A DNA stretch of 64,000 bases from Hetaerina americana (lineage: Eukaryota > Arthropoda > Insecta > Odonata > Calopterygidae), in assembly GCA_022747635.1 (NCBI GenBank), contig JAKTNV010000754.1, positions 1-64,000 on the forward strand. Reading direction: 5' to 3'. Under the pieces are notes generated by a model. The model was given only the letters and a program-made list of their open reading frames with translations, had not been told where the DNA came from and made no database searches. This document shows positions 19,573-59,265 of the stretch, in pieces. The position numbers were made by a program, and so were the translations under genes. Numbering within the stretch: position 1 is the first letter of the stretch; the number at the start of each line of letters is the position of its first letter.

Positions 19573-22142
19573 GTTTGAGGTGTATAGAAGGCATTTATTT
19601 CATTTTTAGAAATTTTAATTTTTCACATTTTTCCATGAAAAGTGCCAATACCCCCCCCTTTGGGTTCTAGGTGAAAATCTCACTCGACACAAATCAAACA
19701 AAAATGTTTCCATGGTGTGTATTGTTGTTCATTTTCATCAAATAAACAAAATAAAACCCAGAATAAATCCTGAAAGACAAGAAATGAGCATAAAAGATGC
19801 TTCAGCGCTAGTGTTAATGTTACTAAAAGAGCCCAAATTTCTAAAAATATTGCGAAAAACATCAATCTTCTGTTTTAGAGTGAATGTTTGAGGTGTATAG
19901 AAGGCATTTATTTCATTTTTAGAAATTTTAATTTTTCACATTTTTCCATGAAAAGTGCCAATACCCCCCCCTTTGGGTTCTAGGTGAAAATCTCACTCGA
20001 CACAAATCAAACAAAAATGTTTCCATGGTGTGTATTGTTGTTCATTTTCATCAAATAAACAAAATGAAACCCAGAATAAATCCTGAAAGACAAGAAATGA
20101 GCATAAAAGATGCTTTAGCGCTAGTGTTAATGTTACTAAAAGAGGCCAAATTTCTAAAAATATTGCGAAAAACAACAATCTTCTGTTTTAGAGTGAATGT
20201 TTGGGGTGTATAGAAGGCATTTATTTCATTTTTAGAAATTTTAATTTTTCACATTTTTCCATGAAAAGTGCCAATACCCCCCCCTTTGGGTTCTAGGTGA
20301 AAATCTCACTCGACACAAATCAAACAAAAATGTTTCCATGGTGTGTATTGTTGTTCATTTTCATCAAATAAACAAAATGAAACCCAGAATAAATCCTGAA
20401 AGACAAAAAATGAGCATAAAAGATGCTTCAGCGCTTGTGTTAATGTTACTAAAAGAGGCCAAATTTCTAAAAATATTGCGAAAAACAACAATCTTCTGTT
20501 TTAGAGTGAATGTTTGGGGTGTATAGAAGGCATTTATTTCATTTTTAGAAATTTTAATTTTTCACATTTTTCCATGAAAAGTGCCAATACCCCCCCCTTT
20601 GGGTTCTACGTGAAAATCTCACTCGACACAAATCAAACAAAAATGTTTCCATGGTGTGTATTGTTGTTCATTTTCATCAAATAAACAAAATAAAACCCAG
20701 AATAAATCCTGAAAGACAAGAAATGAGCATAAAAGATGCTTTAGCGCTAGTGTTAATGTTACTAAAAGAGCCCAAATTTCTAAAAATATTGCGAAAAACA
20801 TCAATCTTCTGTTTTAGAGTGAATGTTTGAGGTGTATAGAAGGCATTTATTTCATTTTTAGAAATTTTAATTTTTCACATTTTTCCATTAAAGGGCCAAT
20901 ACCCCCCTTTGGGTTTCCAGGTGAAAATCTCACTCGACACAAATCAAACAAAAATGTTTCCATGGTGTGTATTGTTGTTCATTTTCATCAAATAAACAAA
21001 ATAAAACCCAGAATAAATCCTGAAAGACAAGAAATGAGCATAAAAGATGCTTCAGCGCTTGTGTTAATGTTACTAAAAGAGGCCAAATTTCTAAAAATAT
21101 TGCGAAAAACAACAATCTTCTGTTTTAGAGTGAATGTTTGGGGTGTATAGAAGGCATTTATTTCATTTTTAGAAATTTTAATTTTTCACATTTTTCCATG
21201 AAAAGTGCCTATACCACCCCCTTTGGGTTCTAGGTGAAAATCTCACTCGACACAAATCAAACAAAAATGTTTCCATGGTGTGTATTGTTGTTCATTTTCA
21301 TCAAATAAACAAAAGAAAACCCAGAATAAATCCTGAAAGACAAGAAATGAGCATAAAAGATGCTTCAGCGCTAGTGTTAATGTTACTAAAAGAGCCCAAA
21401 TTTCTAAAAATATTGCGAAAAACAACAATCTTCTGTTTAAGAGTGAATGTTTGAGGTGTATAGAAGGCATTTATTTCATTTTTAGAAATTTTAATTTTTC
21501 ACATTTTTCCATTAAAGGGCCAATACCCCCCTTTGGGTTTCCAGGTGAAAATCTCACTCGACACAAATCAAACAAAAATGTTTCCATGGTGTATATTGTT
21601 GTTCATTTTCATCAAATAAACAAAATAAAACCCAGAATAAATCCTGAAAGACAAGAAATGAGCATAAAAGATCCTTCAGCGCTAGTGTTAATGTTACTAA
21701 AAGAACCCAAATTTCTAAAAATATTGCGAAAAACAACAATCTTCTGTTTTAGAGTGAATGTTTGAGGTGTATATAAGGCATTTATTTCATTTTTAGAAAT
21801 TTTAATTTTTCACATTTTTCCATGAAAAGTGCCAATACCCCCCCCCTTTGGGTTCTAGGTGAAAATCTCACTCGACACAAATCAAACAAAAATGTTTCCA
21901 TGGTGTGTATTGTTGTTCATTTTCATCAAATAAACAAAATAAAACCCAGAATAAATCCTGAAAGACAAGAAATGAGCATAAAAGATGCTTCAGCGCTAGT
22001 GTTAATGTTACTAAAAGAGCCCAAATTTCTAAAAATATTGCGAAAAACAACAATCTTCTGTTTTAGAGTGAATATTTGAGGTGTATAGAAGGCATTTATT
22101 TCATTTTTAGAAATTTTAATTTTTCTCATTTTTCCATGAAAA

Positions 22143-22418
22143 GTGCCAATACACAAATCAAACAAAAATGTTTTCATGGTGTGTATTATTGTTCATTTTC
22201 ATCAAATAAACAAAATAAAACCCAGAATAAATCCTGAAAGACAAGAAATGAGCATAAAAGATGCTTCAGCGCTAGTGTTAATGTTACTAAAAGAGCCCAA
22301 ATTTCTAAAAATATTGCGAAAAACAACAATCTTCTGTTATAGAGTGAATGTTTGAGGTGTATAGAAGGCATTTATTTCATTTTTAGAAATTTTAATTTTT
22401 CACATTTTTCCATGAAAA
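22143..22418 (+). repeat. Short monomer 2
   Basis: Same 37-bp deletion and linked substitutions as the first. It is followed by a GCTTTAGCG monomer rather than the AAATTAAAACC monomer. Confidence 0.9.
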
Positions 22419-25400
22419 GTGCCAATACCCCCCCCTTTGGGTTCTAGGTGAAAATCTCACTCGACACAAATCAAACAAAAATGTTTCCATGGTGTGTATT
22501 GTTGTTCATTTTCATCAAATAAACAAAATAAAACCCAGAATAAATCCTGAAAGACAAGAAATGAGCATAAAAGATGCTTTAGCGCTAGTGTTAATGTTAC
22601 TAAAAGAGCCCAAATTTCTAAAAATATTGCGAAAACAACAATCTTCTGTTTTAGAGTGAATGTTTGAGGTGTATAGAAGGCATTTATTTCATTTTTAGAA
22701 ATTTTAATTTTTCACATTTTTCCATTAAAGGGCCAAAACCCCCCTTTGGGTTTCCAGGTGAAAATCTCACTCGACACAAATCAAACAAAAATGTTTCCAT
22801 GGTGTGTATTGTTGTTCATTTTCATCAAATAAACAAAATAAAACCCAGAATAAATCCTGAAAGACAAGAAATGAGCATAAAAGATGCTTCAGCGCTTGTG
22901 TTAATGTTACTAAAAGAACCCAAATTTCTAAAAATATTGCGAAAAACAAAAATCTTCTGTTTTAGAGTGAATGTTTGAGGTGTATAGAAGGCATTTATTT
23001 CATTTTTAGAAATTTTAATTTTTCACATTTTTCCATGAAAAGTGCCAATACCCCCCCCTTTGGGTTCTAGGTGAAAATCTCACTCGAAACAAATCAAACA
23101 AAAATGTTTCCATGGTGTGTATTGTTGTTCATTTTCATCAAATAAACAAAATAAAACCCAGAATAAATCCTGAAAGACAAGAAATGAGCAAAAAAGATGC
23201 TTCAGCGCTAGTGTTAATGTTACTAAAAGAGCCCAAATTTCTAAAAATATTGCGAAAAACATCAATCTTCTGTTTTAGAGTGAATGTTTGAGGTGTATAG
23301 AAGGCATTTATTTCATTTTTAGAAATTTTAATTTTTCACATTTTTCCATGAAAAGTGCCAATACCCCCCCCTTTGGGTTCTAGGTGAAAATCTCACTCGA
23401 CACAAATCAAACAAAAATGTTTCCATGGTGTGTATTGTTGTTCATTTTCATCAAATAAACAAAATGAAACCCAGAATAAATCCTGAAAGACAAAAAATGA
23501 GCATAAAAGATGCTTCAGCGCTTGTGTTAATGTTACTAAAAGAGGCCAAATTTCTAAAAATATTGCGAAAAACAACAATCTTCTGTTTTAGAGTGAATGT
23601 TTGGGGTGTATAGAAGGCATTTATTTCATTTTTAGAAATTTTAATTTTTCACATTTTTCCATGAAAAGTGCCAATACCCCCCCCTTTGGGTTCTACGTGA
23701 AAATCTCACTCGACACAAATCAAACAAAAATGTTTCCATGGTGTGTATTGTTGTTCATTTTCATCAAATAAACAAAATAAAACCCAGAATAAATCCTGAA
23801 AGACAAGAAATGAGCATAAAAGATGCTTTAGCGCTAGTGTTAATGTTACTAAAAGAGCCCAAATTTCTAAAAATATTGCGAAAACAACAATCTTCTGTTT
23901 TAGAGTGAATGTTTGAGGTGTATAGAAGGCATTTATTTCATTTTTAGAAATTTTAATTTTTCACATTTTTCCATTAAAGGGCCAATACCCCCCTTTGGGT
24001 TTCCAGGTGAAAATCTCACTCGACACAAATCAAACAAAAATGTTTCCATGGTGTGTATTGTTGTTCATTTTCATCAAATAAACAAAATAAAACCCAGAAT
24101 AAATCCTGAAAGACAAGAAATGAGCATAAAAGATGCTTCAGCGCTTGTGTTAATGTTACTAAAAGAGGCCAAATTTCTAAAAATATTGCGAAAAACAACA
24201 ATCTTCTGTTTTAGAGTGAATGTTTAGGGTATATAGAAGATATTTATTTCATTTTTAGAAATTTTAATTTTTCACATTTTTCCATGAAAAGTGCCAATAC
24301 CCCCCCTTTGGGTTCTAGGTGAAAATCTCACTCGACACAAATCAAACAAAAATGTTTCCATGGTGTGTATTGTTGTTCATTTTCATCAAATAAACAAAAT
24401 AAAACCCAGAATAAATCCTGAAAGACAAGAAATGAGCATAAAAGATGCTTCAGGGCTAGTGTTAATGTTACTAAAAGAGGCCAAATTTCTAAAAATATTG
24501 CGAGAAACAACAATCTTCTGTTTTAGAGTGAATGTTTGAGGTGTATAGAAGGCATTTATTTCATTTTTAGAAATTTTAATTTTTCACATTTTTCCATGAA
24601 AAGTGCCAATACCCCCCCCTTTGGGTTCTACGTGAAAATCTCACTCGACACAAATCAAACAAAAATGTTTCCATGGTGTGTATTGTTGTTCATTTTCATC
24701 AAATAAACAAAATAAAACCCAGAATAAATCCTGAAAGACAAGAAATGAGCATAAAAGATGCTTTAGCGCTAGTGTTAATGTTACTAAAAGAGCCCAAATT
24801 TCTAAAAATATTGCGAAAACAACAATCTTCTGTTTTAGAGTGAATGTTTGAGGTGTATAGAAGGCATTTATTTCATTTTTAGAAATTTTAATTTTTCACA
24901 TTTTTCCATTAAAGGGCCAATACCCCCCTTTGGGTTTCCAGGTGAAAATCTCACTCGACACAAATCAAACAAAAATGTTTCCATGGTGTGTATTGTTGTT
25001 CATTTTCATCAAATAAACAAAATAAAACCCAGAATAAATCCTGAAAGACAAGAAATGAGCATAAAAGATGCTTCAGCGCTTGTGTTAATGTTACTAAAAG
25101 AGGCCAAATTTCTAAAAATATTGCGAAAAACAACAATCTTCTGTTTTAGAGTGAATGTTTAGGGTATATAGAAGATATTTATTTCATTTTTAGAAATTTT
25201 AATTTTTCACATTTTTCCATGAAAAGTGCCAATACCCCCCCTTTGGGTTCTAGGTGAAAATCTCACTCGACACAAATCAAACAAAAATGTTTCCATGGTG
25301 TGTATTGTTGTTCATTTTCATCAAATAAACAAAATAAAACCCAGAATAAATCCTGAAAGACAAGAAATGAGCATAAAAGATGCTTCAGCGCTTGTGTTAA

Positions 25401-25429
25401 TGTTACTTAAAGAGGCCAAATTTCTAAAA

Positions 25430-25468
25430 ATTCACTCTAAAACAAAAATCTTCTGTTTTAGAGTGAAT
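25430..25468. repeat. Perfect hairpin (copy 2)
   Basis: Same 14-11-14 structure, on a CTTGTG, TTACTTAAAG, GAGGCC monomer body. Confidence 0.9.
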
Positions 25469-26825
25469 GTTTGAGGTGTATAGAAGGCATTTATTTCATT
25501 TTTAGAAATTTTAATTTTTCACATTTTTCCATGAAAAGTGCCAATACCCCCCCCTTTGGGTTCTAGGTGAAAATCTCACTCGACACAAATCAAACAAAAA
25601 TGTTTCCATGGTGTGTATTGTTGTTCATTTTCATCAAATAAACAAAATAAAACCCAGAATAAATCCTGAAAGGCAAGAAATGAGCATAAAAGATGCTTCA
25701 GCGCTAGTGTTAATGTTACTAAAAGAGCCCAAATTTCTAAAAATATTGCGAAAAACATCAATCTTCTGTTTTAGAGTGAATGTTTGAGGTGTATAGAAGG
25801 CATTTATTTCATTTTTAGAAATTTTAATTTTTCACATTTTTCCATGAAAAGTGCCAATACCCCCCCCTTTGGGTTCTAGGTGAAAATCTCACTCGACACA
25901 AATCAAACAAAAATGTTTCCATGGTGTGTATTGTTGTTCATTTTCATCAAATAAACAAAATGAAACCCAGAATAAATCCTGAAAGACAAAAAATGAGCAT
26001 AAAAGATGCTTCAGCGCTTGTGTTAATGTTACTAAAAGAGGCCAAATTTCTAAAAATATTGCGAAAAACAACAATCTTCTGTTTTAGAGTGAATGTTTGG
26101 GGTGTATAGAAGGCATTTATTTCATTTTTAGAAATTTTAATTTTTCACATTTTTCCATGAAAAGTGCCAATACCCCCCCCTTTGGGTTCTACGTGAAAAT
26201 CTCACTCGACACAAATCAAACAAAAATGTTTCCATGGTGTGTATTGTTGTTCATTTTCATCAAATAAACAAAATAAAACCCAGAATAAATCCTGAAAGAC
26301 AAGAAATGAGCATAAAAGATGCTTTAGCGCTAGTGTTAATGTTACTAAAAGAGCCCAAATTTCTAAAAATATTGCGAAAAACATCAATCTTCTGTTTTAG
26401 AGTGAATGTTTGAGGTGTATAGAAGGCATTTATTTCATTTTTAGAAATTTTAATTTTTCACATTTTTCCATTAAAGGGCCAATACCCCCCTTTGGGTTTC
26501 CAGGTGAAAATCTCACTCGACACAAATCAAACAAAAATGTTTCCATGGTGTGTATTGTTGTTCATTTTCATCAAATAAACAAAATAAAACCCAGAATAAA
26601 TCCTGAAAGACAAGAAATGAGCATAAAAGATGCTTCAGCGCTTGTGTTAATGTTACTAAAAGAGGCCAAATTTCTAAAAATATTGCGAAAAACAACAATC
26701 TTCTGTTTTAGAGTGAATGTTTGGGGTGTATAGAAGGCATTTATTTCATTTTTAGAAATTTTAATTTTTCACATTTTTCCATGAAAAGTGCCAATACCAC
26801 CCCCTTTGGGTTCTAGGTGAAAATC

Positions 26826-27138
26826 TCACTCGACACAAATCAAACAAAAATGTTTCCATGGTGTGTATTGTTGTTCATTTTCATCAAATAAACAAAAGAA
26901 AACCCAGAATAAATCCTGAAAGACAAGAAATGAGCATAAAAGATGCTTCAGCGCTTGTGTTAATGTTACTAAAAGAGGCCAAATTTCTAAAAATATTGCG
27001 AAAAACAACAATCTTCTGTTTTAGAGTGAATGTTTGGGGTGTATAGAAGGCATTTATTTCATTTTTAGAAATTTTAATTTTTCACATTTTTCCATGAAAA
27101 GTGCCAATACCCCCCCCTTTGGGTTCTACGTGAAAATC
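26826..27138 (+). repeat. Chimeric junction monomer of the 6,520-bp duplication
   Basis: The front half matches monomer 33346: CCACCCCC head, AAAGAAAACCC, and GACAAG with G at 26927. The back half matches monomer 20306: GCGCTTGTG with T at 26956, then GAGGCC and GTTTGGGG. The join therefore lies between 26927 and 26956. A front from the segment beyond the second copy and a back from the segment before the first copy is what unequal crossover predicts. Confidence 0.85.
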
Positions 27139-28662
27139 TCACTCGACACAAATCAAACAAAAATGTTTCCATGGTGTGTATTGTTGTTCATTTTCATCAA
27201 ATAAACAAAATAAAACCCAGAATAAATCCTGAAAGACAAGAAATGAGCATAAAAGATGCTTTAGCGCTAGTGTTAATGTTACTAAAAGAGCCCAAATTTC
27301 TAAAAATATTGCGAAAAACATCAATCTTCTGTTTTAGAGTGAATGTTTGAGGTGTATAGAAGGCATTTATTTCATTTTTAGAAATTTTAATTTTTCACAT
27401 TTTTCCATTAAAGGGCCAATACCCCCCTTTGGGTTTCCAGGTGAAAATCTCACTCGACACAAATCAAACAAAAATGTTTCCATGGTGTGTATTGTTGTTC
27501 ATTTTCATCAAATAAACAAAATAAAACCCAGAATAAATCCTGAAAGACAAGAAATGAGCATAAAAGATGCTTCAGCGCTTGTGTTAATGTTACTAAAAGA
27601 GGCCAAATTTCTAAAAATATTGCGAAAAACAACAATCTTCTGTTTTAGAGTGAATGTTTGGGGTGTATAGAAGGCATTTATTTCATTTTTAGAAATTTTA
27701 ATTTTTCACATTTTTCCATGAAAAGTGCCTATACCACCCCCTTTGGGTTCTAGGTGAAAATCTCACTCGACACAAATCAAACAAAAATGTTTCCATGGTG
27801 TGTATTGTTGTTCATTTTCATCAAATAAACAAAAGAAAACCCAGAATAAATCCTGAAAGACAAGAAATGAGCATAAAAGATGCTTCAGCGCTAGTGTTAA
27901 TGTTACTAAAAGAGCCCAAATTTCTAAAAATATTGCGAAAAACAACAATCTTCTGTTTAAGAGTGAATGTTTGAGGTGTATAGAAGGCATTTATTTCATT
28001 TTTAGAAATTTTAATTTTTCACATTTTTCCATTAAAGGGCCAATACCCCCCTTTGGGTTTCCAGGTGAAAATCTCACTCGACACAAATCAAACAAAAATG
28101 TTTCCATGGTGTATATTGTTGTTCATTTTCATCAAATAAACAAAATAAAACCCAGAATAAATCCTGAAAGACAAGAAATGAGCATAAAAGATCCTTCAGC
28201 GCTAGTGTTAATGTTACTAAAAGAACCCAAATTTCTAAAAATATTGCGAAAAACAACAATCTTCTGTTTTAGAGTGAATGTTTGAGGTGTATATAAGGCA
28301 TTTATTTCATTTTTAGAAATTTTAATTTTTCACATTTTTCCATGAAAAGTGCCAATACCCCCCCCCTTTGGGTTCTAGGTGAAAATCTCACTCGACACAA
28401 ATCAAACAAAAATGTTTCCATGGTGTGTATTGTTGTTCATTTTCATCAAATAAACAAAATAAAACCCAGAATAAATCCTGAAAGACAAGAAATGAGCATA
28501 AAAGATGCTTCAGCGCTAGTGTTAATGTTACTAAAAGAGCCCAAATTTCTAAAAATATTGCGAAAAACAACAATCTTCTGTTTTAGAGTGAATATTTGAG
28601 GTGTATAGAAGGCATTTATTTCATTTTTAGAAATTTTAATTTTTCTCATTTTTCCATGAAAA

Positions 28663-28938
28663 GTGCCAATACACAAATCAAACAAAAATGTTTTCATGGT
28701 GTGTATTATTGTTCATTTTCATCAAATAAACAAAATAAAACCCAGAATAAATCCTGAAAGACAAGAAATGAGCATAAAAGATGCTTCAGCGCTAGTGTTA
28801 ATGTTACTAAAAGAGCCCAAATTTCTAAAAATATTGCGAAAAACAACAATCTTCTGTTATAGAGTGAATGTTTGAGGTGTATAGAAGGCATTTATTTCAT
28901 TTTTAGAAATTTTAATTTTTCACATTTTTCCATGAAAA
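28663..28938 (+). repeat. Short monomer 3
   Basis: Copy of the short monomer at 22143, exactly 6,520 bp away within the tandem duplication. Confidence 0.9.
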
Positions 28939-31900
28939 GTGCCAATACCCCCCCCTTTGGGTTCTAGGTGAAAATCTCACTCGACACAAATCAAACAAAA
29001 ATGTTTCCATGGTGTGTATTGTTGTTCATTTTCATCAAATAAACAAAATAAAACCCAGAATAAATCCTGAAAGACAAGAAATGAGCATAAAAGATGCTTT
29101 AGCGCTAGTGTTAATGTTACTAAAAGAGCCCAAATTTCTAAAAATATTGCGAAAACAACAATCTTCTGTTTTAGAGTGAATGTTTGAGGTGTATAGAAGG
29201 CATTTATTTCATTTTTAGAAATTTTAATTTTTCACATTTTTCCATTAAAGGGCCAAAACCCCCCTTTGGGTTTCCAGGTGAAAATCTCACTCGACACAAA
29301 TCAAACAAAAATGTTTCCATGGTGTGTATTGTTGTTCATTTTCATCAAATAAACAAAATAAAACCCAGAATAAATCCTGAAAGACAAGAAATGAGCATAA
29401 AAGATGCTTCAGCGCTTGTGTTAATGTTACTAAAAGAACCCAAATTTCTAAAAATATTGCGAAAAACAAAAATCTTCTGTTTTAGAGTGAATGTTTGAGG
29501 TGTATAGAAGGCATTTATTTCATTTTTAGAAATTTTAATTTTTCACATTTTTCCATGAAAAGTGCCAATACCCCCCCCTTTGGGTTCTAGGTGAAAATCT
29601 CACTCGAAACAAATCAAACAAAAATGTTTCCATGGTGTGTATTGTTGTTCATTTTCATCAAATAAACAAAATAAAACCCAGAATAAATCCTGAAAGACAA
29701 GAAATGAGCAAAAAAGATGCTTCAGCGCTAGTGTTAATGTTACTAAAAGAGCCCAAATTTCTAAAAATATTGCGAAAAACATCAATCTTCTGTTTTAGAG
29801 TGAATGTTTGAGGTGTATAGAAGGCATTTATTTCATTTTTAGAAATTTTAATTTTTCACATTTTTCCATGAAAAGTGCCAATACCCCCCCCTTTGGGTTC
29901 TAGGTGAAAATCTCACTCGACACAAATCAAACAAAAATGTTTCCATGGTGTGTATTGTTGTTCATTTTCATCAAATAAACAAAATGAAACCCAGAATAAA
30001 TCCTGAAAGACAAAAAATGAGCATAAAAGATGCTTCAGCGCTTGTGTTAATGTTACTAAAAGAGGCCAAATTTCTAAAAATATTGCGAAAAACAACAATC
30101 TTCTGTTTTAGAGTGAATGTTTGGGGTGTATAGAAGGCATTTATTTCATTTTTAGAAATTTTAATTTTTCACATTTTTCCATGAAAAGTGCCAATACCCC
30201 CCCCTTTGGGTTCTACGTGAAAATCTCACTCGACACAAATCAAACAAAAATGTTTCCATGGTGTGTATTGTTGTTCATTTTCATCAAATAAACAAAATAA
30301 AACCCAGAATAAATCCTGAAAGACAAGAAATGAGCATAAAAGATGCTTTAGCGCTAGTGTTAATGTTACTAAAAGAGCCCAAATTTCTAAAAATATTGCG
30401 AAAACAACAATCTTCTGTTTTAGAGTGAATGTTTGAGGTGTATAGAAGGCATTTATTTCATTTTTAGAAATTTTAATTTTTCACATTTTTCCATTAAAGG
30501 GCCAATACCCCCCTTTGGGTTTCCAGGTGAAAATCTCACTCGACACAAATCAAACAAAAATGTTTCCATGGTGTGTATTGTTGTTCATTTTCATCAAATA
30601 AACAAAATAAAACCCAGAATAAATCCTGAAAGACAAGAAATGAGCATAAAAGATGCTTCAGCGCTTGTGTTAATGTTACTAAAAGAGGCCAAATTTCTAA
30701 AAATATTGCGAAAAACAACAATCTTCTGTTTTAGAGTGAATGTTTAGGGTATATAGAAGATATTTATTTCATTTTTAGAAATTTTAATTTTTCACATTTT
30801 TCCATGAAAAGTGCCAATACCCCCCCTTTGGGTTCTAGGTGAAAATCTCACTCGACACAAATCAAACAAAAATGTTTCCATGGTGTGTATTGTTGTTCAT
30901 TTTCATCAAATAAACAAAATAAAACCCAGAATAAATCCTGAAAGACAAGAAATGAGCATAAAAGATGCTTCAGGGCTAGTGTTAATGTTACTAAAAGAGG
31001 CCAAATTTCTAAAAATATTGCGAGAAACAACAATCTTCTGTTTTAGAGTGAATGTTTGAGGTGTATAGAAGGCATTTATTTCATTTTTAGAAATTTTAAT
31101 TTTTCACATTTTTCCATGAAAAGTGCCAATACCCCCCCCTTTGGGTTCTACGTGAAAATCTCACTCGACACAAATCAAACAAAAATGTTTCCATGGTGTG
31201 TATTGTTGTTCATTTTCATCAAATAAACAAAATAAAACCCAGAATAAATCCTGAAAGACAAGAAATGAGCATAAAAGATGCTTTAGCGCTAGTGTTAATG
31301 TTACTAAAAGAGCCCAAATTTCTAAAAATATTGCGAAAACAACAATCTTCTGTTTTAGAGTGAATGTTTGAGGTGTATAGAAGGCATTTATTTCATTTTT
31401 AGAAATTTTAATTTTTCACATTTTTCCATTAAAGGGCCAATACCCCCCTTTGGGTTTCCAGGTGAAAATCTCACTCGACACAAATCAAACAAAAATGTTT
31501 CCATGGTGTGTATTGTTGTTCATTTTCATCAAATAAACAAAATAAAACCCAGAATAAATCCTGAAAGACAAGAAATGAGCATAAAAGATGCTTCAGCGCT
31601 TGTGTTAATGTTACTAAAAGAGGCCAAATTTCTAAAAATATTGCGAAAAACAACAATCTTCTGTTTTAGAGTGAATGTTTAGGGTATATAGAAGATATTT
31701 ATTTCATTTTTAGAAATTTTAATTTTTCACATTTTTCCATGAAAAGTGCCAATACCCCCCCTTTGGGTTCTAGGTGAAAATCTCACTCGACACAAATCAA
31801 ACAAAAATGTTTCCATGGTGTGTATTGTTGTTCATTTTCATCAAATAAACAAAATAAAACCCAGAATAAATCCTGAAAGACAAGAAATGAGCATAAAAGA

Positions 31901-31949
31901 TGCTTCAGCGCTTGTGTTAATGTTACTTAAAGAGGCCAAATTTCTAAAA

Positions 31950-31988
31950 ATTCACTCTAAAACAAAAATCTTCTGTTTTAGAGTGAAT
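31950..31988. repeat. Perfect hairpin (copy 3)
   Basis: Same structure; duplicate of the copy at 25430, 6,520 bp away. Confidence 0.9.
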
Positions 31989-34245
31989 GTTTGAGGTGTA
32001 TAGAAGGCATTTATTTCATTTTTAGAAATTTTAATTTTTCACATTTTTCCATGAAAAGTGCCAATACCCCCCCCTTTGGGTTCTAGGTGAAAATCTCACT
32101 CGACACAAATCAAACAAAAATGTTTCCATGGTGTGTATTGTTGTTCATTTTCATCAAATAAACAAAATAAAACCCAGAATAAATCCTGAAAGGCAAGAAA
32201 TGAGCATAAAAGATGCTTCAGCGCTAGTGTTAATGTTACTAAAAGAGCCCAAATTTCTAAAAATATTGCGAAAAACATCAATCTTCTGTTTTAGAGTGAA
32301 TGTTTGAGGTGTATAGAAGGCATTTATTTCATTTTTAGAAATTTTAATTTTTCACATTTTTCCATGAAAAGTGCCAATACCCCCCCCTTTGGGTTCTAGG
32401 TGAAAATCTCACTCGACACAAATCAAACAAAAATGTTTCCATGGTGTGTATTGTTGTTCATTTTCATCAAATAAACAAAATGAAACCCAGAATAAATCCT
32501 GAAAGACAAAAAATGAGCATAAAAGATGCTTCAGCGCTTGTGTTAATGTTACTAAAAGAGGCCAAATTTCTAAAAATATTGCGAAAAACAACAATCTTCT
32601 GTTTTAGAGTGAATGTTTGGGGTGTATAGAAGGCATTTATTTCATTTTTAGAAATTTTAATTTTTCACATTTTTCCATGAAAAGTGCCAATACCCCCCCC
32701 TTTGGGTTCTACGTGAAAATCTCACTCGACACAAATCAAACAAAAATGTTTCCATGGTGTGTATTGTTGTTCATTTTCATCAAATAAACAAAATAAAACC
32801 CAGAATAAATCCTGAAAGACAAGAAATGAGCATAAAAGATGCTTTAGCGCTAGTGTTAATGTTACTAAAAGAGCCCAAATTTCTAAAAATATTGCGAAAA
32901 ACATCAATCTTCTGTTTTAGAGTGAATGTTTGAGGTGTATAGAAGGCATTTATTTCATTTTTAGAAATTTTAATTTTTCACATTTTTCCATTAAAGGGCC
33001 AATACCCCCCTTTGGGTTTCCAGGTGAAAATCTCACTCGACACAAATCAAACAAAAATGTTTCCATGGTGTGTATTGTTGTTCATTTTCATCAAATAAAC
33101 AAAATAAAACCCAGAATAAATCCTGAAAGACAAGAAATGAGCATAAAAGATGCTTCAGCGCTTGTGTTAATGTTACTAAAAGAGGCCAAATTTCTAAAAA
33201 TATTGCGAAAAACAACAATCTTCTGTTTTAGAGTGAATGTTTGGGGTGTATAGAAGGCATTTATTTCATTTTTAGAAATTTTAATTTTTCACATTTTTCC
33301 ATGAAAAGTGCCAATACCACCCCCTTTGGGTTCTAGGTGAAAATCTCACTCGACACAAATCAAACAAAAATGTTTCCATGGTGTGTATTGTTGTTCATTT
33401 TCATCAAATAAACAAAAGAAAACCCAGAATAAATCCTGAAAGACAAGAAATGAGCATAAAAGATGCTTCAGCGCTAGTGTTAATGTTACTAAAAGAGCCC
33501 AAATTTCTAAAAATATTGCGAAAAACAACAATCTTCTGTTTTAGAGTGAATATTTGAGGTGTATAGAAGGCATTTATTTCATTTTTAGAAATTTTAATTT
33601 TTCTCATTTTTCCATTAAAGGGCCAATTCCCCCCTTTGGGTTTCCAGGTGAAAATCTCACTCGACACAAATCAAACAAAAATGTTTCCATGGTGTATATT
33701 GTTGTTCATTTTCATCAAATAAACAAAATAAAACCCAGAATAAATCCTGAAAGACAAGAAATGAGCATAAAAGATCCTTCAGCGCTAGTGTTAATGTTAC
33801 TAAAAGAACCCAAATTTCTAAAAATATTGCGAAAAACAACAATCTTCTGTTTTAGAGTGAATGTTTGAGGTGTATATAAGGCATTTATTTCATTTTTAGA
33901 AATTTTAATTTTTCACATTTTTCCATGAAAAGTGCCAATACCCCCCCCCTTTGGGTTCTAGGTGAAAATCTCACTCGACACAAATCAAACAAAAATGTTT
34001 CCATGGTGTGTATTGTTGTTCATTTTCATCAAATAAACAAAATAAAACCCAGAATAAATCCTGAAAGACAAGAAATGAGCATAAAAGATGCTTCAGCGCT
34101 AGTGTTAATGTTACTAAAAGAGCCCAAATTTCTAAAAATATTGCGAAAAACAACAATCTTCTGTTTTAGAGTGAATATTTGAGGTGTATAGAAGGCATTT
34201 ATTTCATTTTTAGAAATTTTAATTTTTCTCATTTTTCCATGAAAA

Positions 34246-34521
34246 GTGCCAATACACAAATCAAACAAAAATGTTTTCATGGTGTGTATTATTGTTCATT
34301 TTCATCAAATAAACAAAATAAAACCCAGAATAAATCCTGAAAGACAAGAAATGAGCATAAAAGATGCTTCAGCGCTAGTGTTAATGTTACTAAAAGAGCC
34401 CAAATTTCTAAAAATATTGCGAAAAACAACAATCTTCTGTTATAGAGTGAATGTTTGAGGTGTATAGAAGGCATTTATTTCATTTTTAGAAATTTTAATT
34501 TTTCACATTTTTCCATGAAAA
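34246..34521 (+). repeat. Short monomer 4
   Basis: Same deletion; followed by the AAATTAAAACC monomer 34560, as in unit 1. Confidence 0.9.
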
Positions 34522-34872
34522 GTGCCAATACCCCCCCCTTTGGGTTCTAGGTGAAAATCTCACTCGACACAAATCAAACAAAAATGTTTCCATGGTGTGT
34601 ATTGTTGTTCATTTTCATCAAATAAACAAATTAAAACCCAGAATAAATCCTGAAAGACAAGAAATGAGCATAAAAGATGCTTCAGCGCTAGTGTTAATGT
34701 TACTAAAAGAGCCCAAATTTCTAAAAATATTGCGAAAAACAACAATCTTCTGTTTTAGAGTGAATGTTTGAGGTGTATAGAAGGCATTTATTTCATTTTT
34801 AGAAATTTTAATTTTTCACATTTTTCCATGAAAAGTTCCAATACCCCCCCCTTTGGGTTCTTGGTGAAAATC

Positions 34873-35182
34873 TCACTCCACACAAATCAAACAAAAATGT
34901 TTCCATGGTGTGTATTGTTGTTCATTTTCATCAAATAAACAAAATAAAACCCAGAATAAATCCTGAAAGACAAGAAATGAGCATAAAAGATGCTTCAGCG
35001 CTAGTGTTAATGTTACTAAAAGAGCCCAAATTTCTAAAAATATTGCGAAAACAACAATCTTCTGTTTTAGAGTGAATGTTTGAGGTGTATAGAAGGCATT
35101 TATTTCATTTTTAGAAATTTTAATTTTTCACATTTTTCCATTAAAGGGCCAATACCCCCCTTTGGGTTTCCAGGTGAAAATC
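34873..35182 (+). repeat. Chimeric monomer at a two-monomer deletion
   Basis: The front (TTCTTGG, CTCCAC, GCTTCAG with C at 34996) matches monomer 17806. The back (TTTCTAAAAATATTG with C at 35034, then GCGAAAACAAC one A shorter) matches monomer 18433. The exchange lies between about 34996 and 35034 and removes counterparts of 18120 and of parts of its neighbours. Confidence 0.75.
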
Positions 35183-38858: not shown

Positions 38859-41246
38859 GTGCCAATACCCCCCCCTTTGGGTTCTAGGTGAAAATCTCAC
38901 TCGACACAAATCAAACAAAAATGTTTCCATGGTGTGTATTGTTGTTCATTTTCATCAAATAAACAAAATAAAACCCAGAATAAATCCTGAAAGACAAGAA
39001 ATGAGCATAAAAGATGCTTTAGCGCTAGTGTTAATGTTACTAAAAGAGCCCAAATTTCTAAAAATATTGCGAAAACAACAATCTTCTGTTTTAGAGTGAA
39101 TGTTTGAGGTGTATAGAAGGCATTTATTTCATTTTTAGAAATTTTAATTTTTCACATTTTTCCATTAAAGGGCCAAAACCCCCCTTTGGGTTTCCAGGTG
39201 AAAATCTCACTCGACACAAATCAAACAAAAATGTTTCCATGGTGTGTATTGTTGTTCATTTTCATCAAATAAACAAAATAAAACCCAGAATAAATCCTGA
39301 AAGACAAGAAATGAGCATAAAAGATGCTTCAGCGCTTGTGTTAATGTTACTAAAAGAGGCCAAATTTCTAAAAATATTGCGAAAAACAAAAATCTTCTGT
39401 TTTAGAGTGAATGTTTGAGGTGTATAGAAGGCATTTATTTCATTTTTAGAAATTTTAATTTTTCACATTTTTCCATGAAAAGTGCCAATACCCCCCCCTT
39501 TGGGTTCTAGGTGAAAATCTCACTCGAAACAAATCAAACAAAAATGTTTCCATGGTGTGTATTGTTGTTCATTTTCATCAAATAAACAAAATAAAACCCA
39601 GAATAAATCCTGAAAGACAAGAAATGAGCATAAAAGATGCTTCAGCGCTAGTGTTAATGTTACTAAAAGAGCCCAAATTTCTAAAAATATTGCGAAAAAC
39701 ATCAATCTTCTGTTTTAGAGTGAATGTTTGAGGTGTATAGAAGGCATTTATTTCATTTTTAGAAATTTTAATTTTTCACATTTTTCCATGAAAAGTGCCA
39801 ATACCCCCCCCTTTGGGTTCTAGGTGAAAATCTCACTCGACACAAATCAAACAAAAATGTTTCCATGGTGTGTATTGTTGTTCATTTTCATCAAATAAAC
39901 AAAATGAAACCCAGAATAAATCCTGAAAGACAAAAAATGAGCATAAAAGATGCTTCAGCGCTTGTGTTAATGTTACTAAAAGAGGCCAAATTTCTAAAAA
40001 TATTGCGAAAAACAACAATCTTCTGTTTTAGAGTGAATGTTTTGGGTGTATAGAAGGCATTTATTTCATTTTTAGAAATTTTAATTTTTCACATTTTTCC
40101 ATGAAAAGTGCCAATACCCCCCCCTTTGGGTTCTACGTGAAAATCTCACTCGACACAAATCAAACAAAAATGTTTCCATGGTGTGTATTGTTGTTCATTT
40201 TCATCAAATAAACAAAATAAAACCCAGAATAAATCCTGAAAGACAAGAAATGAGCATAAAAGATGCTTTAGCGCTAGTGTTAATGTTACTAAAAGAGCCC
40301 AAATTTCTAAAAATATTGCGAAAACAACAATCTTCTGTTTTAGAGTGAATGTTTGAGGTGTATAGAAGGCATTTATTTCATTTTTAGAAATTTTAATTTT
40401 TCACATTTTTCCATTAAAGGGCCAATACCCCCCTTTGGGTTTCCAGGTGAAAATCTCACTCGACACAAATCAAACAAAAATGTTTCCATGGTGTGTATTG
40501 TTGTTCATTTTCATCAAATAAACAAAATAAAACCCAGAATAAATCCTGAAAGACAAGAAATGAGCATAAAAGATGCTTCAGCGCTTGTGTTAATGTTACT
40601 AAAAGAGGCCAAATTTCTAAAAATATTGCGAAAAACAACAATCTTCTGTTTTAGAGTGAATGTTTAGGGTATATAGAAGATATTTATTTCATTTTTAGAA
40701 ATTTTAATTTTTCACATTTTTCCATGAAAAGTGCCAATACCCCCCCTTTGGGTTCTAGGTGAAAATCTCACTCGACACAAATCAAACAAAAATGTTTCCA
40801 TGGTGTGTATTGTTGTTCATTTTCATCAAATAAACAAAATAAAACCCAGAATAAATCCTGAAAGACAAGAAATGAGCATAAAAGATGCTTCAGCGCTTGT
40901 GTTAATGTTACTAAAAGAGGCCAAATTTCTAAAAATATTGCGAAAAACAACAATCTTCTGTTTTAGAGTGAATGTTTGGGGTGTATAGAAGGCATTTATT
41001 TCATTTTTAGAAATTTTAATTTTTCACATTTTTCCATGAAAAGTGCCAATACCCCCCCTTTGGGTTCTAGGTGAAAATCTCACTCGACACAAATCAAACA
41101 AAAATGTTTCCATGGTGTGTATTGTTGTTCATTTTCATCAAATAAACAAAATAAAACCCAGAATAAATCCTGAAAGACAAGAAATGAGCATAAAAGATGC
41201 TTCAGCGCTTGTGTTAATGTTACTTAAAGAGGCCAAATTTCTAAAA

Positions 41247-41285
41247 ATTCACTCTAAAACAAAAATCTTCTGTTTTAGAGTGAAT
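41247..41285. repeat. Perfect hairpin (copy 5)
   Basis: Same structure on the TTACTTAAAG body. Confidence 0.9.
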
Positions 41286-43543
41286 GTTTGAGGTGTATAG
41301 AAGGCATTTATTTCATTTTTAGAAATTTTAATTTTTCACATTTTTCCATGAAAAGTGCCAATACCCCCCCCTTTGGGTTCTAGGTGAAAATCTCACTCGA
41401 CACAAATCAAACAAAAATGTTTCCATGGTGTGTATTGTTGTTCATTTTCATCAAATAAACAAAATAAAACCCAGAATAAATCCTGAAAGGCAAGAAATGA
41501 GCATAAAAGATGCTTCAGCGCTAGTGTTAATGTTACTAAAAGAGCCCAAATTTCTAAAAATATTGCGAAAAACATCAATCTTCTGTTTTAGAGTGAATGT
41601 TTGAGGTGTATAGAAGGCATTTATTTCATTTTTAGAAATTTTAATTTTTCACATTTTTCCATGAAAAGTGCCAATACCCCCCCCTTTGGGTTCTAGGTGA
41701 AAATCTCACTCGACACAAATCAAACAAAAATGTTTCCATGGTGTGTATTGTTGTTCATTTTCATCAAATAAACAAAATGAAACCCAGAATAAATCCTGAA
41801 AGACAAAAAATGAGCATAAAAGATGCTTCAGCGCTTGTGTTAATGTTACTAAAAGAGGCCAAATTTCTAAAAATATTGCGAAAAACAACAATCTTCTGTT
41901 TTAGAGTGAATGTTTGGGGTGTATAGAAGGCATTTATTTCATTTTTAGAAATTTTAATTTTTCACATTTTTCCATGAAAAGTGCCAATACCCCCCCCTTT
42001 GGGTTCTACGTGAAAATCTCACTCGACACAAATCAAACAAAAATGTTTCCATGGTGTGTATTGTTGTTCATTTTCATCAAATAAACAAAATAAAACCCAG
42101 AATAAATCCTGAAAGACAAGAAATGAGCATAAAAGATGCTTTAGCGCTAGTGTTAATGTTACTAAAAGAGCCCAAATTTCTAAAAATATTGCGAAAAACA
42201 TCAATCTTCTGTTTTAGAGTGAATGTTTGAGGTGTATAGAAGGCATTTATTTCATTTTTAGAAATTTTAATTTTTCACATTTTTCCATTAAAGGGCCAAT
42301 ACCCCCCTTTGGGTTTCCAGGTGAAAATCTCACTCGACACAAATCAAACAAAAATGTTTCCATGGTGTGTATTGTTGTTCATTTTCATCAAATAAACAAA
42401 ATAAAACCCAGAATAAATCCTGAAAGACAAGAAATGAGCATAAAAGATGCTTCAGCGCTTGTGTTAATGTTACTAAAAGAGGCCAAATTTCTAAAAATAT
42501 TGCGAAAAACAACAATCTTCTGTTTTAGAGTGAATGTTTGGGGTGTATAGAAGGCATTTATTTCATTTTTAGAAATTTTAATTTTTCACATTTTTCCATG
42601 AAAAGTGCCAATACCACCCCCTTTGGGTTCTAGGTGAAAATCTCACTCGACACAAATCAAACAAAAATGTTTCCATGGTGTGTATTGTTGTTCATTTTCA
42701 TCAAATAAACAAAAGAAAACCCAGAATAAATCCTGAAAGACAAGAAATGAGCATAAAAGATGCTTCAGCGCTAGTGTTAATGTTACTAAAAGAGCCCAAA
42801 TTTCTAAAAATATTGCGAAAAACAACAATCTTCTGTTTTAGAGTGAATATTTGAGGTGTATAGAAGGCATTTATTTCATTTTTAGAAATTTTAATTTTTC
42901 TCATTTTTCCATTAAAGGGCCAATACCCCCCCTTTGGGTTTCCAGGTGAAAATCTCACTCGACACAAATCAAACAAAAATGTTTCCATGGTGTATATTGT
43001 TGTTCATTTTCATCAAATAAACAAAATAAAACCCAGAATAAATCCTGAAAGACAAGAAATGAGCATAAAAGATCCTTCAGCGCTAGTGTTAATGTTACTA
43101 AAAGAACCCAAATTTCTAAAAATATTGCGAAAAACAACAATCTTCTGTTTTAGAGTGAATGTTTGAGGTGTATATAAGGCATTTATTTCATTTTTAGAAA
43201 TTTTAATTTTTCACATTTTTCCATGAAAAGTGCCAATACCCCCCCCCTTTGGGTTCTAGGTGAAAATCTCACTCGACACAAATCAAACAAAAATGTTTCC
43301 ATGGTGTGTATTGTTGTTCATTTTCATCAAATAAACAAAATAAAACCCAGAATAAATCCTGAAAGACAAGAAATGAGCATAAAAGATGCTTCAGCGCTAG
43401 TGTTAATGTTACTAAAAGAGCCCAAATTTCTAAAAATATTGCGAAAAACAACAATCTTCTGTTTTAGAGTGAATATTTGAGGTGTATAGAAGGCATTTAT
43501 TTCATTTTTAGAAATTTTAATTTTTCTCATTTTTCCATGAAAA

Positions 43544-43819
43544 GTGCCAATACACAAATCAAACAAAAATGTTTTCATGGTGTGTATTATTGTTCATTTT
43601 CATCAAATAAACAAAATAAAACCCAGAATAAATCCTGAAAGACAAGAAATGAGCATAAAAGATGCTTCAGCGCTAGTGTTAATGTTACTAAAAGAGCCCA
43701 AATTTCTAAAAATATTGCGAAAAACAACAATCTTCTGTTATAGAGTGAATGTTTGAGGTGTATAGAAGGCATTTATTTCATTTTTAGAAATTTTAATTTT
43801 TCACATTTTTCCATGAAAA
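43544..43819 (+). repeat. Short monomer 6
   Basis: Same deletion; followed by the AAATTAAAACC path. Confidence 0.9.
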
Positions 43820-44797
43820 GTGCCAATACCCCCCCCTTTGGGTTCTAGGTGAAAATCTCACTCGACACAAATCAAACAAAAATGTTTCCATGGTGTGTAT
43901 TGTTGTTCATTTTCATCAAATAAACAAATTAAAACCCAGAATAAATCCTGAAAGACAAGAAATGAGCATAAAAGATGCTTCAGCGCTAGTGTTAATGTTA
44001 CTAAAAGAGCCCAAATTTCTAAAAATATTGCGAAAAACAACAATCTTCTGTTTTAGAGTGAATGTTTGAGGTGTATAGAAGGCATTTATTTCATTTTTAG
44101 AAATTTTAATTTTTCACATTTTTCCATGAAAAGTTCCAATACCCCCCCCTTTGGGTTCTTGGTGAAAATCTCACTCCACACAAATCAAACAAAAATGTTT
44201 CCATGGTGTGTATTGTTGTTCATTTTCATCAAATAAACAAAATAAAACCCAGAATAAATCCTGAAAGACAAGAAATGAGCATAAAAGATGCTTCAGCGCT
44301 AGTGTTAATGTTACTAAAAGAGCCCAAATTTATAAAAAAATTGCGAAAAACAACAATCTTCTGTTTTAGAGTGAATGTTTGAGGTGTATAGAAGGCATTT
44401 ATTTCATTTTTAGAAATTTTAATTTTTCACATTTTTCCATGAAAAGTGCCAATACCCCCCCCCTTTGGGTTCTAGGTGAAAATCTCACTTGACACAAATC
44501 AAACAAAAATGTTTCCATGGTGTGTATTGTTGTTCATTTTCATCAAATAAACAAAATAAAACCCAGAATAAATCCTGAAAGACAAGAAATGAGCAAAAAA
44601 GATGCTTCAGCGCTGGTGTTAATGCTACTAAAAGAGCCCAAATTTCTAAAAATATTGCGAAAAACAACAATCTTCTGTTTTAGAGTAAATGTTTGAGGTG
44701 TATAGAAGGCATTTATTTCATTTTTAGAAATTTTAATTTTTCACATTTTTCCATGAAAAGTTCCAATACCCCCACCTTTGGGTTCTTGGTGAAAATC

Positions 44798-45420
44798 TCA
44801 CTCCACACAAATCAAACAAAAATGTTTCCATGGTGTGTATTGTTGTTCATTTTCATCAAATAAACAAAATAAAACCCAGAATAAATCCTGAAAGACAAGA
44901 AATGAGCATAAAAGATGCTTTAGCGCTAGTGTTAATGTTACTAAAAGAGCCCAAATTTCTAAAAATATTGCGAAAACAACAATCTTCTGTTTTAGAGTGA
45001 ATGTTTAGGGTATATAGAAGGCATTTATTTCATTTTTAGAAATTTTAATTTTTCACATTTTTCCATGAAAAGTGCCAATACCCCCCCTTTGGGTTCTAGG
45101 TGAAAATCTCACTCGACACAAATCAAACAAAAATGTTTCCATGGTGTGTATTGTTGTTCATTTTCATCAAATAAACAAAATAAAACCCAGAATAAATCCT
45201 GAAAGACAAGAAATGAGCATAAAAGATGCTTCAGCGCTTGTGTTAATGTTACTAAAAGAGGCCAAATTTCTAAAAATATTGCGAAAAACAACAATCTTCT
45301 GTTTTAGAGTGAATGTTTAGGGTATATAGAAGGCATTTATTTCATTTTTAGAAATTTTAATTTTTCACATTTTTCCATGAAAAGTGCCAATACCCCCCCT
45401 TTGGGTTCTAGGTGAAAATC
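44798..45420 (+). repeat. Two monomers with a converted junction
   Basis: Monomer 44798 starts like 18433 (TTCTTGG, GCTTTAGCG, AAAACAAC) but ends in GTTTAGGGTATA and a standard ATGAAAAGTGCC junction. In unit 1 the equivalent tail is GTTTGAGG followed by a K junction. Monomer 45109 then has the body and GTTTAGGG tail of 18743 without its K head. The monomer number is unchanged, so a patch of roughly 100 bp (about 44,998-45,100) appears replaced. The same state is seen at 57815-58437. Confidence 0.55.
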
Positions 45421-45732
45421 TCACTCGACACAAATCAAACAAAAATGTTTCCATGGTGTGTATTGTTGTTCATTTTCATCAAATAAACAAAATAAAACCC
45501 AGAATAAATCCTGAAAGACAAGAAATGAGCATAAAAGATGCTTCAGCGCTTGTGTTAATGTTACTAAAAGAGGCCAAATTTCTAAAAATATTGCGAAAAA
45601 CAACAATCTTCTGTTTTAGAGTGAATGTTTGGGGTGTATAGAAGGCATTTATTTCATTTTTAGAAATTTTAATTTTTCACATTTTTCCATGAAAAGTGCC
45701 AATACCCCCCCTTTGGGTTCTAGGTGAAAATC

Positions 45733-46978
45733 TCACTCGACACAAATCAAACAAAAATGTTTCCATGGTGTGTATTGTTGTTCATTTTCATCAAATAAAC
45801 AAAATAAAACCAGAATAAATCCTGAAAGACAAGAAATGAGCATAAAAGATGCTTTAGCGCTAGTGTTAATGTTACTAAAAGAGCCCAAATTTCTAAAATA
45901 TTGCGAAAACAACAATCTTCTGTTTTAGAGTGAATGTTTGAGGTGTATAGAAGGCATTTATTTCATTTTTAGAAATTTTAATTTTTCACATTTTTCCATT
46001 AAAGGGCCAATACCCCCTTTGGGTTTCCAGGTGAAAATCTCACTCGACACAAATCAAACAAAAATGTTTCCATGGTGTGTATTGTTGTTCATTTTCATCA
46101 AATAAACAAAATAAAACCCAGAATAAATCCTGAAAGACAAGAAATGAGCATAAAAGATGCTTCAGCGCTTGTGTTAATGTTACTAAAAGAGGCCAAATTT
46201 CTAAAAATTCACTCTAAAACAAAAATCTTCTGTTTTAGAGTGAATGTTTGAGGTGTATAGAAGGCATTTATTTCATTTTTAGAAATTTTAATTTTTCACA
46301 TTTTTCCATGAAAAGTGCCAATACCCCCCCCTTTGGGTTCTAGGTGAAAATCTCACTCGACACAAATCAAACAAAAATGTTTCCATGGTGTGTATTGTTG
46401 TTCATTTTCATCAAATAAACAAAATAAAACCCCAGAATAAATCCTGAAAGACAAGAAATGAGCATAAAAGATGCTTCAGCGCTAGTGTTAATGTTACTAA
46501 AAGAGCCCAAATTTCTAAAAATATTGCGAAAAACATCAATCTTCTGTTTTAGAGTGAATGTTTGAGGTGTATAGAAGGCATTTATTTCATTTTTAGAAAT
46601 TTTAATTTTTCACATTTTTCCATGAAAAGTGCCAATACCCCCCCCCTTTGGGTTCTAGGTGAAAATCTCACTCGACACAAATCAAACAAAAATGTTTCCA
46701 TGGTGTGTATTGTTGTTCATTTTCATCAAATAAACAAAATGAAACCCAGAATAAATCCTGAAAGACAAAAATGAGCATAAAAGATGCTTCAGCGCTTGTG
46801 TTAATGTTACTAAAAGAGGCCAAATTTCTAAAAATATTGCGAAAAACAACAATCTTCTGTTTTAGAGTGAATGTTTGGGGTGTATAGAAGGCATTTATTT
46901 CATTTTAGAAATTTTAATTTTTCACATTTTTCCATGAAAAGTGCCAATACCCCCCCCTTTGGGTTCTACGTGAAAATC
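45733..46978. repeat. Cluster of one-base indels
   Basis: Within about 1.2 kb there is a lost C near 45811, a lost A near 45896, a five-C tract near 46013, an extra C near 46431, a lost A near 46769 and a lost T near 46903. The near-identical copy at 58.75-60.0 kb has the usual form at each point. Neighbouring stretches on both sides are free of such changes. Confidence 0.7.
46207..46245. repeat. Perfect hairpin (copy 6)
   Basis: Same structure, in a monomer with a K-type head. Confidence 0.9.
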
Positions 46979-48502
46979 TCACTCGACACAAATCAAACAA
47001 AAATGTTTCCATGGTGTGTATTGTTGTTCATTTTCATCAAATAAACAAAATAAAACCCAGAATAAATCCTGAAAGACAAGAAATGAGCATAAAAGATGCT
47101 TTAGCGCTAGTGTTAATGTTACTAAAAGAGCCCAAATTTCTAAAAATATTGCGAAAAACATCAATCTTCTGTTTTAGAGTGAATGTTTGAGGTGTATAGA
47201 AGGCATTTATTTCATTTTTAGAAATTTTAATTTTTCACATTTTTCCATTAAAGGGCCAATACCCCCCTTTGGGTTTCCAGGTGAAAATCTCACTCGACAC
47301 AAATCAAACAAAAATGTTTCCATGGTGTGTATTGTTGTTCATTTTCATCAAATAAACAAAATAAAACCCAGAATAAATCCTGAAAGACAAGAAATGAGCA
47401 TAAAAGATGCTTCAGCGCTTGTGTTAATGTTACTAAAAGAGGCCAAATTTCTAAAAATATTGCGAAAAACAACAATCTTCTGTTTTAGAGTGAATGTTTG
47501 GGGTGTATAGAAGGCATTTATTTCATTTTTAGAAATTTTAATTTTTCACATTTTTCCATGAAAAGTGCCTATACCACCCCCTTTGGGTTCTAGGTGAAAA
47601 TCTCACTCGACACAAATCAAACAAAAATGTTTCCATGGTGTGTATTGTTGTTCATTTTCATCAAATAAACAAAAGAAAACCCAGAATAAATCCTGAAAGA
47701 CAAGAAATGAGCATAAAAGATGCTTCAGCGCTAGTGTTAATGTTACTAAAAGAGCCCAAATTTCTAAAAATATTGCGAAAAACAACAATCTTCTGTTTTA
47801 GAGTGAATGTTTGAGGTGTATAGAAGGCATTTATTTCATTTTTAGAAATTTTAATTTTTCACATTTTTCCATTAAAGGGCCAATACCCCCCTTTGGGTTT
47901 CCAGGTGAAAATCTCACTCGACACAAATCAAACAAAAATGTTTCCATGGTGTATATTGTTGTTCATTTTCATCAAATAAACAAAATAAAACCCAGAATAA
48001 ATCCTGAAAGACAAGAAATGAGCATAAAAGATCCTTCAGCGCTAGTGTTAATGTTACTAAAAGAACCCAAATTTCTAAAAATATTGCGAAAAACAACAAT
48101 CTTCTGTTTTAGAGTGAATGTTTGAGGTGTATATAAGGCATTTATTTCATTTTTAGAAATTTTAATTTTTCACATTTTTCCATGAAAAGTGCCAATACCC
48201 CCCCCCTTTGGGTTCTAGGTGAAAATCTCACTCGACACAAATCAAACAAAAATGTTTCCATGGTGTGTATTGTTGTTCATTTTCATCAAATAAACAAAAT
48301 AAAACCCAGAATAAATCCTGAAAGACCAGAAATGAGCATAAAAGATGCTTCAGCGCTAGTGTTAATGTTACTAAAAGAGCCCAAATTTCTAAAAATATTG
48401 CGAAAAACAACAATCTTCTGTTTTAGAGTGAATATTTGAGGTGTATAGAAGGCATTTATTTCATTTTTAGAAATTTTAATTTTTCTCATTTTTCCATGAA
48501 AA

Positions 48503-48778
48503 GTGCCAATACACAAATCAAACAAAAATGTTTTCATGGTGTGTATTATTGTTCATTTTCATCAAATAAACAAAATAAAACCCAGAATAAATCCTGAAAG
48601 ACAAGAAATGAGCATAAAAGATGCTTCAGCGCTAGTGTTAATGTTACTAAAAGAGCCCAAATTTCTAAAAATATTGCGAAAAACAACAATCTTCTGTTAT
48701 AGAGTGAATGTTTGAGGTGTATAGAAGGCATTTATTTCATTTTTAGAAATTTTAATTTTTCACATTTTTCCATGAAAA
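48503..48778 (+). repeat. Short monomer 7
   Basis: Same deletion; preceded by the monomer with the private GACCAG change. Confidence 0.9.
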
Positions 48779-50853: not shown

Positions 50854-50892
50854 ATTCACTCTAAAACAAAAATCTTCTGTTTTAGAGTGAAT
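50854..50892. repeat. Perfect hairpin (copy 7)
   Basis: Same structure, in a K-headed monomer followed by a 12-C tract. Confidence 0.9.
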
Positions 50893-59226: not shown

Positions 59227-59265
59227 ATTCACTCTAAAACAAAAATCTTCTGTTTTAGAGTGAAT
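59227..59265. repeat. Perfect hairpin (copy 10)
   Basis: Same structure in a K-headed monomer; counterpart of copy 6. Confidence 0.9.

What the first reader, a model, noticed from the sequence alone, without database searches (positions are those of the whole stretch)
20407..33476. 6,520-bp tandem duplication with the crossover mapped to about 29 bp
Phase points of the two copies differ by exactly 6,520 bp throughout, with shared rare variants. Monomer 26826 has the front of 33346 and the back of 20306, with the switch between 26927 and 26956. This is the product expected from an unequal crossover between misaligned HORs. The lack of any visible C-tract length change implies a very recent event, or an assembly duplication.
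Basis: partly seen in the sequence, partly recalled or inferred. Interest (0 to 1): 0.75.

Follow-up and report, generated by a model that had tools for sequence, protein, structure and literature searches.

The report
Perfect tandem duplication in satellite array
A 6,520-base block of a repetitive satellite array has been copied head-to-tail without a single difference, and the seam can be placed within 28 bases; it is a clean example of how such arrays are already thought to grow.

Summary
Positions 20408-26955 equal 26928-33475 with no difference (6,548 bp at lag 6,520). The monomer at the seam is an exact front/back hybrid of two parent monomers that still stand at the outer ends; its switch lies in 26928-26955. 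The 77-base seam occurs once in the 1.63-Gb assembly. The window is part of a 69-kb contig made wholly of a 313-bp satellite, probably of an invertebrate. A 37-bp-deletion marker shows higher-order repeats (HORs) of nominally 16 monomers; 4 of 11 intervals have that length. New here: the exchange was three monomers out of HOR register, turning an 18-monomer interval into 21 + 18. Recency is only an upper bound: another, 13-kb duplication in the contig is only weakly shown to be older (P 0.02-0.07 by counting choice). Unequal crossover fits, but out-of-register break-induced replication (BIR) gives the same product. An assembly duplication cannot be excluded without reads, though the seam argues against it. 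Known process, well-resolved example.

The parts
20408..26927 (+). Duplication copy A (6,520 bp)
   Evidence: identical at lag 6,520
26928..33447 (+). Duplication copy B (6,520 bp)
   Evidence: identical to copy A
26928..26955 (+). 28-bp switch tract at the seam, identical to 20408-20435 and 33448-33475
26803..27115 (+). Hybrid seam monomer (variant 96T>G from one parent, 154A>T and 235A>G from the other)
   Evidence: the 77-base seam 26894-26970 is found once in the assembly
20283..20595 (+). Intact parent 1 (97A>G 125G>A 154A>T 235A>G), source of the hybrid's back
33323..33633 (+). Intact parent 2 (96T>G 176G>C 230G>A 282A>T and others), source of the hybrid's front
21845..22433 (+). 589-bp double unit with a 37-bp deletion: HOR marker inside copy A
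28365..28953 (+). HOR marker inside copy B
33948..34536 (+). HOR marker just right of the duplication
34850..35159 (+). Second hybrid monomer: front like 17783, back like 18410; switch 34997-35033; removes 627 bp (two monomers)
40980..64000 (+). Another tandem duplication of about 13.02 kb (about 40980-53437 against about 53992-66454, running past the window end), few differences

Best explanation
A single homologous recombination event between two monomers 6,520 bp apart in the same array, most likely on sister chromatids, joined the front of one monomer to the back of another and so added one 6,520-bp copy. The partners were three monomers out of HOR register, so an 18-monomer HOR interval (5,583 bp) became a 21-monomer interval plus the original 18. 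Shown in the assembly: exact duplication, hybrid seam, intact parents at the outer edges, 28-bp switch, seam found once. Inferred: that the assembly is right here, sister chromatids, one event, and the pathway. I lean slightly to out-of-register break-induced replication (about 0.45 of my belief) over reciprocal unequal crossover (about 0.37), on published grounds and not on this sequence.
For: Exact 6,548-bp match and seam geometry, a single switch that keeps the 313-bp frame; seam once in 1.63 Gb, reversed control 0; partners 11 substitutions and 2 indels apart over 313 bp, with about 96-97% identity over three monomers on each side; HOR intervals of 21, 18, 16, 15, 14, 11 and 8 monomers in the same contig and at least two further out-of-register hybrids (34850 with a 37-bp switch; 67720) show that such exchange is usual here. 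Reviews and an experiment on out-of-register exchange and BIR, passages only: PMC8997354, PMC12321929, PMC11034957.
Against: No reads, no second individual and no allele without the duplication: the HOR marker lies only on this contig, apart from one 2-mismatch hit on C343. Zero differences also fit an assembler using one set of reads twice. A reciprocal deletion seam was sought only in the five fetched contigs and not found (0 of 5); that absence says little.
Confidence: 0.82

Rival explanations
1. Assembly artefact: the block is present once in the animal and was laid down twice, or a chimeric read made the seam.
For: No difference at all in 6,520 bp; small contig (69,216 bp) whose first 2.5 kb (10 private indels) and 45-47.5 kb (4) look poorly polished.
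Against: The seam is a hybrid monomer found nowhere else in the assembly; its partners share only 28 identical bases at the switch within about 96% identity, too little for overlap misjoining by accurate long reads (inference). No private indels from 10 to 45 kb, also when copy B is left out so that variants of the block are counted once.
Confidence: 0.12
2. Excision of a 6,520-bp circle (the seam made on circularisation) and its re-insertion into the array by homologous recombination.
For: Gives the identical product; listed among satellite mechanisms in PMC12321929 (passages).
Against: Needs two events instead of one; [quoted passage not shown]
Confidence: 0.04
3. An old duplication kept identical by gene conversion.
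For: HOR copies here are generally very alike (median 4 differences in 1,843 bp).
Against: Identity is perfect over the whole block and ends at the seam tract, whereas conversion would leave patchy tracts; the review PMC12321929 gives conversion scales of under 500 bp in humans and about 125 bp in Arabidopsis (passage).
Confidence: 0.02

Closest known systems
Unequal exchange model of satellite evolution (Smith 1976, as described in passages of PMC8997354)
   Same: Out-of-register homologous exchange between tandem monomers, giving duplication or deletion and hybrid monomers
   Different: No deletion partner seen; reciprocity cannot be shown
Break-induced replication model of HOR expansion (Rice 2020 as described in PMC8997354; Showman et al. 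2024, PMC11034957; passages)
   Same: Predicts out-of-register restart behind the fork with net duplication, as seen
   Different: Those data are human alpha satellite, in cell lines for Showman et al.; here a 313-bp satellite in one static assembly
New HOR variants in human alpha satellite arrays (Logsdon et al. 2024, PMC11062924; passages)
   Same: HOR forms change by gains and losses of units within an array
   Different: Monomer 313 bp instead of about 171 bp; unrelated organism; array size and centromere role unknown
Segmental duplications of satellite arrays in the pea chromosome 6 centromere (PMC10027222; passages)
   Same: Direct duplication of large parts of satellite arrays, seen in an assembly
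   Different: Megabase scale in one case (5.2 Mb); seam not compared here

Membership tests
Tandem duplication by homologous out-of-register exchange | Two head-to-tail copies with a hybrid unit at the seam and intact parent units at the outer edges | tested here: met
Tandem duplication by homologous out-of-register exchange | Seam keeps the monomer frame | tested here: met
   hybrid monomer is 313 bp with variants at the parents' positions
Reciprocal unequal crossover | Reciprocal deletion product | tested here: inconclusive
   90-base reciprocal seam in 0 of 5 fetched contigs, rest of the genome not searched; the other sister would normally be lost
Break-induced replication | Dependence on PIF1/RAD52 and one-sided synthesis | not testable with these tools
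   single assembly
Higher-order repeat array | Multi-monomer unit repeated with higher identity than its monomers have to each other | tested here: met
   marker every 16 monomers in 4 of 11 intervals; HOR copies differ at a median of 4 places in 1,843 bp, the two parent monomers by 11 substitutions in 313 bp. Unit length is not constant.
Functional centromere satellite | Centromeric histone occupancy | not testable with these tools
   no chromatin data

The most novel reading that the evidence does not exclude
The array changes mainly by exchange that ignores HOR register but keeps monomer register, at a high current rate, so that HOR length is not maintained; the two best-mapped switches (monomer positions 126-153 and 148-184) would then mark a preferred exchange zone in mid-monomer. 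A third hybrid that switches earlier (between 29 and 96) speaks against the zone, not against the first half.
Probability: 0.1. Interest if true: 0.45.

Novelty: new member of a known kind. Interest (0 to 1): 0.3.

Why it matters
Satellite arrays are thought to grow and shrink by out-of-register recombination, and fresh products with both parents still beside the seam are good evidence of partner choice. Here the partners were three monomers out of HOR register and about 96% alike, so strict HOR register was not needed. The 77-base seam, found once in the assembly, makes a simple genotyping target for measuring how young and how common the event is.

Tried and rejected
A special sequence at the switch: the 28-mer occurs 149 times in the 222 units of the contig and its tract is of ordinary variability (122 of 270 windows vary less), so no hotspot motif is claimed. 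A shared switch hotspot: a third hybrid (67720) carries its front parent's 29C>T and its back parent's 96T>G, so it switches earlier in the monomer. RNA families: no Rfam match at gathering scores in the window. Relatives: a 30-base core of the monomer had no exact match in genome contigs or viral contigs; these hold prokaryotes and viruses, so little was to be expected. Papers on a 313-bp satellite: three searches; two searches listed one paper each (PMC2719913, PMC7806164; listings only), none; nothing in the listings identified this satellite, and no claim is made that it is not in print. Searches for mechanism papers: (listings), of which five papers were looked into by passages. Organism: COX1 on contig C1580 is open under the invertebrate mitochondrial code and shows four stops under the vertebrate one; other codes were not tried. 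Its best solved relatives are, as I recall the entries, animal enzymes; the table prints no organism. So probably an invertebrate animal, not identified further. The idea that missing C-tract change proves recency was dropped after 7 of the 10 inner indels of the 13-kb pair turned out to lie in one 1.1-kb patch.

Full report
What was checked. The window is bases 1-64000 of contig C1309 (69,216 bp) of an assembly of 1.63 Gb in 1,580 contigs. The contig is satellite from end to end: all 223 blastn matches to a 313-bp consensus are over 250 bp and on one strand, mean identity about 98%, covering 7-69216. Four more contigs that the first genome search listed (C1131, C8, C16, C1323) are also wholly this satellite; that search scored only 40 of 1,385 candidates, so other satellite contigs may exist and were not examined. 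COX1 on contig C1580 is open under the invertebrate mitochondrial code, so the source is probably an invertebrate animal.

The duplication. At lag 6,520 there is one unbroken exact run, 20408-26955 against 26928-33475, 6,548 bp. A gapped alignment of the two 6,520-bp copies finds no substitution and no indel, and the 20 C-tracts found in each copy agree. The extra 28 bases (26928-26955) also stand at 33448-33475, so the seam cannot be placed more finely. Over 1,843 bp around the HOR marker, the 66 pairs among 12 copies differ at a median of 4 places; 3 of 66 pairs are identical, this one and two that belong to the 13-kb duplication, and the 11 pairs with the last, truncated HOR differ at about 30 places. 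Extrapolated, about 14 differences would be expected over 6,520 bp for ordinary HOR neighbours.

The seam. A script joining the two parents reproduced the hybrid's positions 91-180; the rest follows from the exact run. Of 11 units of the window with 96T>G, only this one has the parent-1 back. The 77-base seam 26894-26970 is found once in the whole assembly, with no hit of the reversed control.

Register. The HORs of this contig are marked by a pair of monomers fused by a 37-bp deletion (589-bp unit). Marker spacings are 4964, 6520, 5583, 4337, 4961, 4959, 4651, 3406, 4963, 4652 and 2468 bp, that is 16, 21, 18, 14, 16, 16, 15, 11, 16, 15 and 8 monomers (counted). The exchange partners stand six and three places before the deleted unit, so the event was three monomers out of HOR register: 6,520 = 5,583 + 937. 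The marker (up to two mismatches) was found 13 times in the assembly, 12 of them on C1309 and one, with two mismatches, on C343; no second haplotype of this HOR array was thus at hand. The first 17 kb of the contig carry no marker.

Other events in the same contig. Monomer 34850 is a deletion-type hybrid: it matches at lag 17,067 exactly up to 35033 and at lag 16,440 from 34997, a 37-bp switch and a loss of 627 bp. Monomer 67720 (beyond the window) has the front of the type at 18097/44462 and the back of the type at 37660/47580 and others. A tandem duplication of about 13.02 kb runs from about 40980-53437 to about 53992-66454. Between 42547 and 53437 it shows 1 substitution and 10 one-base indels, after leaving out two indels at the very ends of the compared stretch; 7 of the 10 lie between about 45.8 and 46.9 kb. 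Outside that patch there are 4 differences in 9.8 kb; were the 6,520-bp pair as old, 2.7 would be expected and none seen with probability 0.07. If the stretch 40980-42546 is added (2 substitutions and a 5-base C-tract difference), there are 7 in 11.3 kb, 4.0 expected, probability 0.018. So the 6,520-bp event is perhaps the younger one, not firmly so. A further pair at lag 16,440 (18557-22917) has 1 difference in 4,361 bp, comparably young.

Age. No difference in 6,520 bp gives a 95% upper bound of 4.6e-4 on pairwise divergence, or at most about 23,000-230,000 generations for mutation rates of 1e-8 to 1e-9 per base per generation (the rates are assumed).

Artefact or real. Indels seen in one unit only, a sign of poor polishing (C-tracts not counted), lie in the first 2.5 kb (10), at 5-10 kb (3), 45-47.5 kb (4) and 52.5-55 kb (1), none between 10 and 45 kb. 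Because a variant of the duplicated block is counted twice in that map, it was repeated without copy B: copy A then has no private indel and two private substitutions, both in monomer 24305. The seam itself needs some read to hold it, since its partners are about 96% alike with 28 identical bases at the switch; that is inference about how assemblers join reads, and the read type is unknown. Reads were not available, so the artefact keeps a probability of 0.12.

Mechanism. Reviews describe unequal exchange and break-induced replication as rival models for out-of-register change, the later one holding BIR likely to be the primary mode (passages of PMC8997354, and of PMC12321929). Showman et al. 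report array change in a human cell line that needs RAD52 and PIF1, with expansions more frequent than contractions (passages of PMC11034957). Logsdon et al. describe new HORs in human arrays and patterns that implicate more than simple unequal crossover (passages of PMC11062924). The sequence here fits either model. The 28-bp tract shows nothing special.

Verdict. The finding is accurate and is a clear example of a known process. The addition made here is that the exchange ignored HOR register while keeping monomer register, and that several products of the same kind lie in one 69-kb contig.

Noticed in passing
window 40980-64000 (continuing to contig position 66454): A second tandem duplication of about 13.02 kb with few differences; near its seam (53446-54073) stand an odd monomer (53757) that is not a simple two-parent switch and a 12-C tract.
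   Followed up: partly
window 45800-46910: Seven single-base indels against the paired copy; looks like a poorly polished patch rather than real variation.
   Followed up: partly
window 1-2500: Ten private indels and shortened monomers at the contig end, as expected of low coverage.
   Followed up: no
window 24305 and 30825: Monomer with 150C>G and 200A>G found only in the two copies, inside a 935-bp internal repeat; perhaps a trace of the older exchange that made the 18-monomer HOR.
   Followed up: no
contig C8 (36697-43103 counted on its reverse complement) and contig C1323 1-6407: The end of one satellite contig matches the start of the other in four long exact runs at an offset constant to one base: perhaps an unmerged overlap or two haplotypes.
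   Followed up: no
G000:C343:19583-19628: Single 2-mismatch match to the HOR marker outside C1309.
   Followed up: no
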